DNA of 49,647 nt from Nitrospirales bacterium (GTDB lineage: Bacteria > Nitrospirota > Nitrospiria > Nitrospirales > UBA8639), in assembly GCA_009377845.1 (NCBI GenBank), contig WHTE01000009.1, forward strand, positions 1-49,647, written 5' to 3'. Position 1 is the stretch's first letter; every line of letters starts with the position of its first letter. Shown here in pieces: positions 46,648-49,647 of this stretch. The notes under the pieces are model-generated. The model saw only the letters and a program-made list of their open reading frames with translations, was not told the origin of the DNA and ran no database searches. Made by a program: the position numbers and the translations under genes.

Positions 46648-47073
46648 CAGCTCAAGCAGGCTGAGGCAATTAGGCGTGGAGCTTTGCCCCCTGAGCAGTG
46701 CAGGAACAAAAATGGTCGCGCAAACCTGAACCAAGAAAGAAAATCCAAAAAGGAGGTTTGACCCTAAAAGCAGATAATTCCTGACGGAAAATCCCCTGAA
46801 CGTGATTTTGAGGGCCCCCCATGGGGCGAATCCACACAAATCGATTCCCAGTTTTCATCAAGGTTTAGATCTGATAGGGCTGTGCCTAGGTCAGTAATTG
46901 GTGGATTCTTCATCAGTGATCCTCTTTCAGGCTGGCCAAAAGAAGTCCTGAAGCTAAATCGCTGACCATTCAACCGAACCCTTGAGTTGCACTTATAAGT
47001 TGAATTCATCAAGATTCAAAATGAAACCACCCAAGATACGAAACGCGATCAGCAGTATGAGCCTTGAAGATGA

Positions 47074-47232
47074 ACTGCGTTGCTGGTCGACGCTATTCAA
47101 ATTCGCTATGACTTTTTCGGAGACTTGCGGCGGCTTGGGCTTGAGTATCGGGTTGAGCATGAAAAAGAGGAATTGGCCGAGGCTATTACTGACGCCTGGC
47201 AACGGTTGAGCGCGGTCTCTCTGGATGCCTAG
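47074..47232 (+). pseudogene. Open remnant of an unrecognised gene
   Basis: A frame of about 50 codons ends at TAG 47230 and reads like ordinary protein (DAIQIRYDFFGDLRRLGLEY, then EHEKEELAEAITDAWQRLSA), rich in Glu, Leu and Arg. It has only a TTG as a possible start, no ribosome-binding site, and stops just upstream in the same frame. It may be the 3' end of a lost gene; I cannot name it. Confidence 0.3.
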
Positions 47233-47456
47233 ACCCCGACCCCATCACATCCAACGCCTTGGGCGCTCGATACGTTGGCCCTCCAGAATGAAAGGAACTT
47301 CACCCATGATAGAGACCCCCCCTGTGTGGCCCATCAGTGAGGATTGGCCTTCTCTGTGCTCAATGCGGATACATTGAGCCTTAGTTTTCCGTCCCGGTTC
47401 CCGCTGCATATCTTCATGGTTGAGCTATAATTATACTTCTACCCCTATACTTACAA

Positions 47457-47491
47457 TGTCTAACACATATAATATTATGTAGCACTAGACA
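47457..47491. promoter_or_regulatory. A+T-rich inverted repeat over a TATAAT box
   Basis: TGTCTA at 47457-47462 mirrors TAGACA at 47486-47491, with CATA/TATG inside. A perfect TATAAT lies at 47468-47473. No good -35 box stands 17 bases before it. It could be the operator/promoter of the cassette starting at 47636, about 145 bases downstream. Confidence 0.3.
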
Positions 47492-47635
47492 CATGGTACT
47501 ATGAGTGTTTTTCGCATAGCATTCTGCCGTGGAAGTTTTTTAGAGTTTTCTGCACTCTTCCCTCAAGGATGGTAACGAACGATTTAATCCTTGATGTAAA
47601 TCATGTGAAGTTTTTTCACTCCAGGCAAAAAAATT

Positions 47636-48460
47636 ATGGTTAAGAAGGAAAGAACTCTTCCTCTTTTTGATGAACCTCCTGTTGTCGAAACAGTTCTTGG
47701 GGTCCAGTTTGTTCCTTTAAAAGGATTTTCGTTCCAACATTTCGGTTTATTTTGGTCTCGAATACGCCAAAAATATCCAAAATTTATTCCCAAACCCCCT
47801 CTTGTTCCTGTGGTTGAAGATTTCGAAGGAAAACTTTTTCAAAAGCCAAAATTTTCTATTTCCCTTTCAGAAAATCCAAATGATATCCGAGGATGGTATT
47901 TAAACGCCCCAGAAACCAGACTGATTCAACTACAGAATGACCGCTTTCTCTACAACTGGAAAAAAGTGAAAGGAGATGAACTCTACCCACAATTTGATAC
48001 CATTCAACCCGAATTTAAAGCAGAATGGGAAAATTTTTGTAGGTTTTTAACCGAGGAGAATTTTAACCACCCTGAACTCACCCAGTGCGAAGTTACATAT
48101 GTAAACCACATTGAAATCGAAAAAGGTTGGAAGTCATTTGGTGATTTTGACAAAGTATTTGCGCCATGGTCTGGGCAATTTTCTGGAAGTTTCTTGCCCA
48201 CTCCAGAAAAAATTACATTTAATATTGCCTTTACAATTCCCCAAAAAAAGGGGAGGCTTCATATTTCTGCTCAACCAGCTATTAGAAGGCAGGATGGTAA
48301 AGAGATTGTTAAGGTTGAACTTACTGCACGGGGTCGACCTAGTCATTCCAGCCTTAGTGCGATCCTAGAATGGTTTGATATTGGACACGAATGGATTGTC
48401 CGAGGATTTACCGATTTAACCACTGTTCATATGCACAAAATATGGAGGAGACAAAAATGA
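47636..48460 (+). CDS. TIGR04255-family protein
   Basis: The 274-residue product has the family layout. It starts with EPPVVETVLGVQFVPLKGFS, followed by HFGLFWSRIRQKYPKFIPKPPL. The middle has a strand/loop region with RLIQLQNDRFLYNWKK. The end has the LEWFDIGHEWIVRGFTDLTTVHMHKIW block. The family occurs sporadically, often in variable regions, and has no established function. Base composition is visibly more A+T-rich than in the genes to the left. It is the first gene of a three-gene set; its stop overlaps the next start (ATGA). Confidence 0.85.
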   Translation: MVKKERTLPLFDEPPVVETVLGVQFVPLKGFSFQHFGLFWSRIRQKYPKFIPKPPLVPVVEDFEGKLFQKPKFSISLSENPNDIRGWYLNAPETRLIQLQNDRFLYNWKKVKGDELYPQFDTIQPEFKAEWENFCRFLTEENFNHPELTQCEVTYVNHIEIEKGWKSFGDFDKVFAPWSGQFSGSFLPTPEKITFNIAFTIPQKKGRLHISAQPAIRRQDGKEIVKVELTARGRPSHSSLSAILEWFDIGHEWIVRGFTDLTTVHMHKIWRRQK

Positions 48461-48918
48461 TCGTTGATGCCCCATATCTTCCAGTGGTTCCTACTCTCGA
48501 AGATAGCGAAAATTACCTTCTTTCTACTTCCCGATATACCTGGACTGATGAGGTTAGTACATATGGGTTGTCTTCATGGCAAATTCAAACAATAAACAGA
48601 ATAATACATCTTAGGAACTTACATGAGGATTGGGATTCATATGGAAGCCACGCTCCATCAACGTCAATAATTAACAAGTCTATTGAATTAATCCAGGCCT
48701 TACCTTCCGAAGATTTTCCAGTTCCAGAGGTAATACCGACATCGGGCGAAGGCATTCAGTTTGAATGGAGGGATGAAAATAAAGAACTTGAGATTGAAGT
48801 AAATAAGTATGGTGAGATTGTATACTTGAAATGTGAAAACGAGGAGCCGGTGCAGGAAGGATCGATTGAAGGCTCAGATCAATTGTCTAATCTTGTTTTT
48901 TGGGTTACTTCAGTATGA
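48457..48918 (+). CDS. Hypothetical protein with an EDWDSYG motif (cassette gene 2)
   Basis: 153 residues, acidic, soluble. I start at ATG 48457 because it overlaps the stop of the TIGR04255 gene by four bases (ATGA), the mark of coupled translation; the longer frame from 48391 lies inside that gene. A central LRNLHEDWDSYGSHAPSTSIINKSIELIQAL segment (in part: HEDWDSYGSHAPS) and a following FEWRDENKELEIEVNKYGEIVYL strand pair recur, as I recall, in small uncharacterised proteins of accessory DNA. Low GC like its neighbours. Function unknown. Confidence 0.8.
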   Translation: MIVDAPYLPVVPTLEDSENYLLSTSRYTWTDEVSTYGLSSWQIQTINRIIHLRNLHEDWDSYGSHAPSTSIINKSIELIQALPSEDFPVPEVIPTSGEGIQFEWRDENKELEIEVNKYGEIVYLKCENEEPVQEGSIEGSDQLSNLVFWVTSV

Positions 48919-48939
48919 TCGAAATTTTTCTACCCAGTT

Positions 48940-49329
48940 ATGGACCCATTAATTGATGATCCTGAGATATCTAATGAAGAAATTTTGTATAGGCGGATTT
49001 CTCCACAATGGATGATATATGAAAATAATCAATGGCGTCCGTCATCGGCAGCTTTTAAAACAACTCAAATGTCAGTTCATCTCGCTTCTCTGATTTCTCC
49101 AGAAATGACCTTAGCCTCTTATCCAGAGCACAGCCTAGTCTCTATTACCGCAGGAAAGGTACGTGAATTAGAATGTATCATCGCTAGGGAAAAGAATGAT
49201 CCCGATCCTTCGCATGCACTTGTATGTCCCCAAAAAAATTTTAACGTATCCCTTTCCGGGGGCACCGCCAAAAGATTAGCTAAAAGTGCTATCTGGGTTA
49301 AACTGAATCCCCCAACCACCCCATCCTAA
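48940..49329 (+). CDS. Hypothetical protein with a WRPSSAAF motif (cassette gene 3)
   Basis: 129 residues, starting 21 bases after gene 2. It opens with LYRRISPQWMIYENNQWRPSSAAF, then SVHLASLISPEMTLASYPEHS, SITAGKVRELECII and DPSHALVCPQKN, and ends basic (GGTAKRLAKSAIWVKL). I recall this pattern in small proteins from genomic islands without a known function. There is no membrane segment. No strong ribosome-binding site is seen before the ATG, so it may depend on read-through from gene 2. Confidence 0.75.
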   Translation: MDPLIDDPEISNEEILYRRISPQWMIYENNQWRPSSAAFKTTQMSVHLASLISPEMTLASYPEHSLVSITAGKVRELECIIAREKNDPDPSHALVCPQKNFNVSLSGGTAKRLAKSAIWVKLNPPTTPS

Positions 49330-49560
49330 AAGACCTTCTCACTCCCCCAATCGAAACAATTTCCTTTCAATTTTTTCTCTTCGGCCACTCGCATGAAGCA
49401 TACGAGCTATTTTGAGGTCCCCCTAAAAATTCGACATGATTTCTTTTCAATCAATTTCGGGAAACAGTTATTCACAGATGGAAATTGAATGGTGGGCCAA
49501 TTATCTGTTGGTTTGGATTTGATGATGGTCCTCCTAAGGCACTGTAAATAAATAAAGGTA

Positions 49561-49647
49561 TCAACCTGTCTTTACGTTTGGCTTGATGAGGTAGTTCCAC
49601 TCGCCATGAAACTTGTGGGGTTCCAGGTTCACGCGCTGCATCTCTTC
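49561..49647 (-). mobile_element. C-terminal end of an IS transposase (ISAzo13-like), cut by the window edge
   Basis: Minus-strand frame of 28 codons running to a TGA at 49561: it contains VNLEPHKFHGEWNYLIKP, like the HGxWNYxIxP ending of ISAzo13-type transposases. The rest lies beyond the right edge. The insertion-sequence end probably lies near 49535-49560 (AAGGCACTGTAAATAAATAA), but its inverted repeat cannot be confirmed. Confidence 0.65.

What the first reader, a model, noticed from the sequence alone, without database searches (positions are those of the whole stretch)
47457..49329. A+T-rich three-gene cassette led by a TIGR04255 gene: candidate undescribed system
Three genes (274, 153 and 129 aa) lie tightly spaced, the first two overlapping by ATGA. 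Their base composition is visibly different from the rest of the window. They lie between gene debris on the left and an IS end on the right. None has a known function, but each has a strong conserved core (EPPVVETVLGVQF, EDWDSYG, WRPSSAAF). Small mobile modules of this kind are often defence, toxin-antitoxin or stress systems. A possible operator palindrome lies upstream.
Basis: partly seen in the sequence, partly recalled or inferred. Interest (0 to 1): 0.72.

Follow-up and report, generated by a model that had tools for sequence, protein, structure and literature searches.

The report
Conserved three-gene mobile toxin-like operon
Three small genes of unknown function at the end of this bacterial contig are a real, widely shared unit that travels on phages, plasmids and insertion sequences; the third protein is predicted to fold like NAD-using toxin enzymes, so the set is probably an uncharacterised self-controlled toxin or anti-phage system.

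Summary
Three tightly packed genes (274, 153 and 129 aa) sit in 39% G+C DNA inside a 51% G+C contig that ends in a multi-copy repeat. Of 82 loci related to gene 1, from about ten phyla, 70 carry gene 2 immediately downstream. Of the 63 with an intact gene 3, 62 carry gene 2. In a reverse search from gene 2 in Acidobacteriota, 5 or 6 of 8 hits have a TIGR04255 gene upstream. The same genome holds a second diverged copy.

Genes 2 and 3 are homologues of the C-terminal part of PDC-M32A and of PDC-M32B, an untested PADLOC candidate defence system. There the N-terminal half is a different domain; here TIGR04255 takes its place. Gene 3 is predicted with high confidence (pLDDT 95). Its best PDB fold matches are ADP-ribosyltransferase-fold proteins (KptA/Tpt1, AvrPphF ORF2), with an R-S-H signature conserved in at least 93% of 66 diverged proteins. 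Copies lie beside phage integrase, terminase and relaxase genes. In one related locus a HEPN gene fills the gene-3 slot.

Best reading: a three-part toxin/partner/sensor conflict module. Function is inferred. Defence-gene neighbours were not enriched, and the operator palindrome is not significant.

The parts
47636..48460 (+). gene 1, TIGR04255 family protein, 274 aa; slowest-evolving member; proposed sensor/control subunit
   Evidence: NCBIfam TIGR04255 8.2e-17, over cut-off; 82 related loci; AF2 model pLDDT 94 with no confident PDB fold match
48457..48918 (+). gene 2, 153 aa W-D-x-Y-G protein; homologous to the C-terminal domain of PDC-M32A; proposed partner/antitoxin
   Evidence: PADLOC PDLC04576 2.3e-11, profile 263-350 of 375; 58-59 of 60 relatives match PDC-M32A; downstream of gene 1 in 70 of 82 loci
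48940..49329 (+). gene 3, 129 aa; homologous to PDC-M32B; predicted ADP-ribosyltransferase-like fold with R18-S45-H92; proposed effector
   Evidence: PADLOC PDLC04579 7.8e-5; AF2 pLDDT 95.3; Foldseek KptA/Tpt1 and AvrPphF ORF2; conservation
48443..48448 (+). Shine-Dalgarno GGAGGA ahead of gene 2
   Evidence: read directly from the sequence
49533..49647 (.). multi-copy repeat (probable IS end) at which the contig stops
   Evidence: 99-100% identical to the ends of contigs C40 and C55

Best explanation
A mobile, self-contained three-gene conflict module. Gene 3 is a small effector with an ADP-ribosyltransferase-like fold that would modify a host or phage target (or consume NAD+). Gene 2 is its obligate partner and keeps it in check, like an antitoxin or adaptor. 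Gene 1 (TIGR04255) is the control or sensor subunit that releases the effector on a trigger such as phage infection. Shown here: the conserved operon, inheritance as a unit, mobility, homology of genes 2 and 3 to PDC-M32, and the predicted fold of gene 3. Inferred: enzymatic activity, which gene is toxin and which is antitoxin, the sensing step, and the phage-defence outcome.
For: Conserved order and presence across about ten phyla, with correlated divergence. Gene 3 is almost never found without gene 2 (62 of 63 loci), while gene 2 survives alone or after loss of gene 3 (L162, L163). Gene 3 fold matches: KptA/Tpt1 at probability 0.96/0.91 and AvrPphF ORF2; a viral tRNA 2'-phosphotransferase is also among the BFVD matches. 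R18, S45 and H92 are conserved at 93%, 100% and 98% over 66 diverged proteins. Gene-3 slot exchange: in L107 a HEPN-like protein takes it; the N-terminal domain of PDC-M32A pairs with a VapC20-like PIN toxin in L035. Carriage: directly 3' of a phage integrase in L126, beside terminase genes in L127 and in the own-genome copy, and after mobF on a Mycobacterium plasmid. Sporadic: gene 2 in 7 of 247 Acidobacteriota genomes. PDC candidates were nominated because they are embedded in defence systems (PMC12988326).
Against: Foldseek E-values for gene 3 are weak (0.07-0.13, TM about 0.38-0.48), and profile comparison gives no sequence homology to KptA or RES. The third catalytic position is H, not E. 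Immediate neighbours are not enriched for defence genes against control regions. Two of the loci with a broken gene 1 keep gene 3 intact, although these are MAGs. No toxicity or phage data exist.
Confidence: 0.45

Rival explanations
1. Nucleic-acid repair or stress response: gene 3 works like KptA/Tpt1 on phosphorylated RNA or DNA ends, and genes 1 and 2 recruit or regulate it, so the operon protects the cell rather than arresting it.
For: The closest solved folds are KptA/Tpt1, which belong to the ART clade lacking the catalytic acid (PMC9503650).
Against: No sequence homology to KptA, no recurring ligase, 2H or macro gene among the listed adjacent families, and sporadic distribution on mobile elements.
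Confidence: 0.15
2. Plain selfish addiction or plasmid/prophage maintenance module (toxin-antitoxin) without any role in defence.
For: Small, self-contained, on plasmids, prophages and IS-flanked DNA; no enrichment of defence genes next to it.
Against: Gene 1 is large and strongly conserved (37% median identity against 21% for gene 2), more than simple TA pairs need; the sister candidate PDC-M32 was nominated through embedding in defence systems.
Confidence: 0.2
3. Gene 3 is a non-catalytic ART-like binding protein, and the operon is a sensing or regulatory complex with an unrelated output (for example metabolite response).
For: The third ART position is H; fold scores are marginal; gene 1 is weakly similar to TBP-like and START-like ligand or nucleic-acid-binding folds.
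Against: Near-absolute conservation of R, S and H at 20-40% overall identity; HEPN replaces gene 3 in L107.
Confidence: 0.2

Closest known systems
PADLOC candidate system PDC-M32 (PDC-M32A + PDC-M32B)
   Same: Gene 2 is homologous to the C-terminal third of M32A and gene 3 to M32B, in the same order.
   Different: M32A is one ~375 aa protein whose N-terminal ~250 aa domain does not match TIGR04255. Here that domain is missing and a separate TIGR04255 gene takes its place. TIGR04255 is not in PADLOC.
NCBIfam TIGR04255 (sporadically distributed family)
   Same: Gene 1 is a member over the curated cut-off.
   Different: The family is annotated as a single protein of unknown function; this work shows that a large branch of it is the first gene of a three-gene operon, with exchangeable partners elsewhere.
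CmdTAC toxin-antitoxin-chaperone system (PMC11618068)
   Same: Three genes, an ADP-ribosyltransferase-fold effector, mobile distribution.
   Different: No SecB-like fold among the listed matches of gene 1; different gene order; gene 3 is small and lacks a conserved catalytic acid.
KptA/Tpt1 RNA 2'-phosphotransferase and RES toxins (ART superfamily)
   Same: Predicted fold topology and a conserved Arg in strand 1.
   Different: No detectable sequence homology; different conserved residues (R-S-H).

Membership tests
TIGR04255 | profile score over curated cut-off (30 bits) | tested here: met
   61.8 bits, residues 11-271
PDC-M32 | M32A with its own N-terminal domain fused to the WDxYG domain | tested here: not met
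   gene 2 matches only profile 263-350 of 375; gene 1 has no PADLOC match
PDC-M32 | M32B downstream | tested here: met
   gene 3 vs PDLC04579 7.8e-5; true M32B proteins found by the gene 3 profile (L128, L158, L159, L166)
ADP-ribosyltransferase superfamily | split beta-sheet ART fold | tested here: inconclusive
   top PDB hits are ART-fold proteins but E 0.07-0.13, TM 0.38-0.48
ADP-ribosyltransferase superfamily | R-S-E, H-Y-E or H-H-h active-site signature | tested here: not met
   conserved residues are R18, S45, H92
ADP-ribosyltransferase superfamily | NAD+-dependent activity | not testable with these tools
   needs protein
Toxin-antitoxin(-chaperone) systems | toxicity of one gene neutralised by another | not testable with these tools
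   only indirect: gene 3 seldom without gene 2
Toxin-antitoxin-chaperone (TAC) | SecB-like chaperone gene | tested here: not met
   no SecB among the 50 listed fold matches of gene 1
Anti-phage defence system | lies in defence islands | tested here: not met
   PADLOC models hit in 124 adjacent genes: 17; in 120 control genes: 93; small, crude test
Anti-phage defence system | protects against phage | not testable with these tools
   needs experiment

The most novel reading that the evidence does not exclude
TIGR04255 proteins are the common sensor of a large, undescribed class of three-part phage-defence systems whose effector slot is exchangeable (ART-like gene 3, HEPN, and an uncharacterised QGD...QACDL protein). 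The gene 3/PDC-M32B family is a new minimal clade of ADP-ribosyltransferase-fold effectors with an R-S-H active site.
Probability: 0.3. Interest if true: 0.82.

Novelty: new variant of a known kind. Interest (0 to 1): 0.6.

Why it matters
It turns three 'hypothetical protein' families, present in many phyla, into one defined and testable system. It joins NCBI's TIGR04255 to the untested PDC-M32 candidate and names specific residues (R18, S45, H92 of gene 3) and an exchangeable effector slot to test. If correct, PADLOC-type surveys miss the TIGR04255-led version of this module.

Tried and rejected
Pfam and NCBIfam gave nothing for genes 2 and 3. Profile searches of PDB sequences gave only chance hits. 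hhalign of the gene 3 superfamily to KptA (3 sequences) and RES gave p = 0.04 and 0.63, no support. The operator palindrome was rejected as not above shuffles. The defence-island hypothesis was tested with neighbour and control genes and not supported. A fourth conserved gene was looked for: 120 different Pfam families among 124 adjacent genes, none recurring in more than three, so the module stops at three genes. No related phage record was found by tblastn of gene 1 in the annotated phage collection. Pattern searches of viral contigs with genes 2 and 3 were impossible because no stretch is conserved enough.

Full report
OBSERVATION. The three ORFs are as described: 47636-48460 (274 aa), 48457-48918 (153 aa, ATGA overlap, strong Shine-Dalgarno), 48940-49329 (129 aa). 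The cassette has 39.2% G+C, against 51.1 +/- 1.7% for windows of the same length elsewhere in the contig. Gene 1 is a TIGR04255 protein. The contig stops 318 bp after gene 3, in a sequence shared with two other contig ends, so an insertion sequence or other repeat on the right is plausible. A palindromic operator is not supported.

REAL UNIT OR ACCIDENT. The same genome has a second, diverged copy of all three genes in the same order (49% identity in gene 1, 29% in gene 2). A scan of 84,980 species genomes plus a viral collection gave 82 loci related to gene 1 in about ten phyla. With profiles built here for genes 2 and 3, gene 2 lies directly downstream in 70 of 82, and an intact gene 3 in 63, of which 62 also have gene 2. 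Several loci counted as lacking gene 2 or 3 hold strongly diverged versions in the same slots (L054, L063, L102, L119, L122, L125). In the reverse direction, a gene-2 profile searched in 247 Acidobacteriota genomes found 8 places in 7 genomes. Five have a TIGR04255 gene immediately upstream (one of them broken), one more has an unassigned upstream gene at a contig end, one is a PDC-M32-type fusion, and one is a solitary gene 2 next to an AbiEi-like gene. Distance matrices of the three proteins correlate at r = 0.71-0.77 with no permutation close, although a shared operon history alone would also give this.

MOBILITY. The own-genome second copy lies between a terminase-small-subunit-like gene and an IS6-like transposase (assignments read from the sequence). 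The closest plasmid hit puts the trio directly behind a MobF relaxase. Viral contig L126 has it directly 3' of a tyrosine integrase, and L127 lies next to a large-terminase-like gene (assignments read from the sequence). The gene 1 tree needs 22 phylum changes where 9 is the minimum (shuffled mean 37), so it is partly phylum-structured with repeated apparent transfers; MAG contamination cannot be excluded. Presence is sporadic (7 of 247 genomes). No further gene is conserved beside the trio.

WHAT THE PROTEINS ARE. Pfam has no model for any of them. PADLOC's candidate PDC-M32 is the nearest described thing: gene 2 and 58-59 of 60 relatives match the last third of PDC-M32A, and gene 3 matches PDC-M32B. 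True PDC-M32 pairs found here (L128, L158, L159, L166) are a 366-401 aa fusion followed by a 126-140 aa gene 3 homologue. The N-terminal domain of that fusion occurs upstream of a VapC20-like PIN toxin in L035. PDCs were nominated by 'guilt by embedding' and are mostly untested (PMC12988326). PDC-M32 itself is reported only as a prediction in Sinorhizobium prophages (PMC12429752).

GENE 3 FOLD. AlphaFold2 with the 57-sequence alignment gives pLDDT 95. Foldseek against PDB returns AvrPphF ORF2 and then a long list of KptA/Tpt1 structures, all of the ADP-ribosyltransferase fold, with probabilities up to 0.96 but E-values of 0.07 and above. Against viral models, a tRNA 2'-phosphotransferase is again among the matches. 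Across 66 diverged homologues R18 (93%), S45 (100%) and H92 (98%) stand out. Sequence profiles do not link the family to KptA or RES, and the usual catalytic Glu is replaced by His. I therefore call it 'ART-like' and leave activity open.

GENE 1 FOLD. The model is confident (pLDDT 94), but no PDB match is convincing (best E 2e-3, TM about 0.25: TBP-like, START-like). Strictly conserved Q98, Q100, N107, W108, Y117, F258 and W270 suggest a binding site.

EXCHANGEABLE PARTNERS. In L107 the slot of gene 3 holds a HEPN-like protein (phmmer E 0.0099 to a solved HEPN protein). In L056, L092 and L097 (and L010) it holds a 195-213 aa protein with a QGDI...QACDL-type motif and no PDB relative. Loci L007, L027 and L030, with more distant TIGR04255 genes, still carry genes 2 and 3. 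A constant first gene with a changing last gene is typical of sensor/effector conflict systems (general knowledge).

MECHANISM. Most likely gene 3 is the effector, gene 2 its obligate partner/antitoxin (fastest evolving, 21% median identity), and gene 1 the control or sensor subunit. The analogy is to CmdTAC, in which a phage-sensing subunit releases an ADP-ribosyltransferase (PMC11618068). It is not a CmdTAC member: no SecB-like fold was seen. Confidence is 0.45. Rivals are a pure addiction module, a nucleic-acid end-repair system, and a non-catalytic regulatory complex.

LIMITS. A crude neighbour test gave fewer PADLOC hits beside the trio than in control regions of the same contigs (17 models in 124 genes against 93 models in 120 genes, the latter inflated by one Gabija-like locus), so the defence-island argument must not be used for this module. 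Many loci are MAG contigs, and frameshifts there may be assembly errors.

Noticed in passing
L191:5172-6909 (own genome, contig C3): Second diverged copy of the trio, between a phage terminase-small-subunit-like gene and an IS6-like transposase.
   Followed up: partly
L056, L092, L097, L010: TIGR04255 genes followed by an unrelated small gene and a 195-213 aa protein with a conserved QGDI...VxxxQxCDL motif: an unknown alternative partner family.
   Followed up: partly
L107:1686-2063: A HEPN-like gene takes the third position behind a TIGR04255 gene.
   Followed up: partly
L035:1498-2840: A homologue of the N-terminal domain of PDC-M32A directly upstream of a VapC20-like PIN gene: that domain may be an antitoxin-type module.
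   Followed up: partly
L163 (G399): Solitary gene 2 homologue next to an AbiEi-like antitoxin gene, without genes 1 and 3.
   Followed up: partly
L008, L013, L014, L016-L020, L022, L023, L025, L026, L028: A different TIGR04255 subfamily, usually one copy per genome in the window's own genus, without genes 2 and 3: possibly a domesticated core gene.
   Followed up: no
window 46650-47456: Stretch without a clear gene between the response-regulator/PAS ORF and the cassette; possible gene remnants, single-copy in this genome.
   Followed up: no
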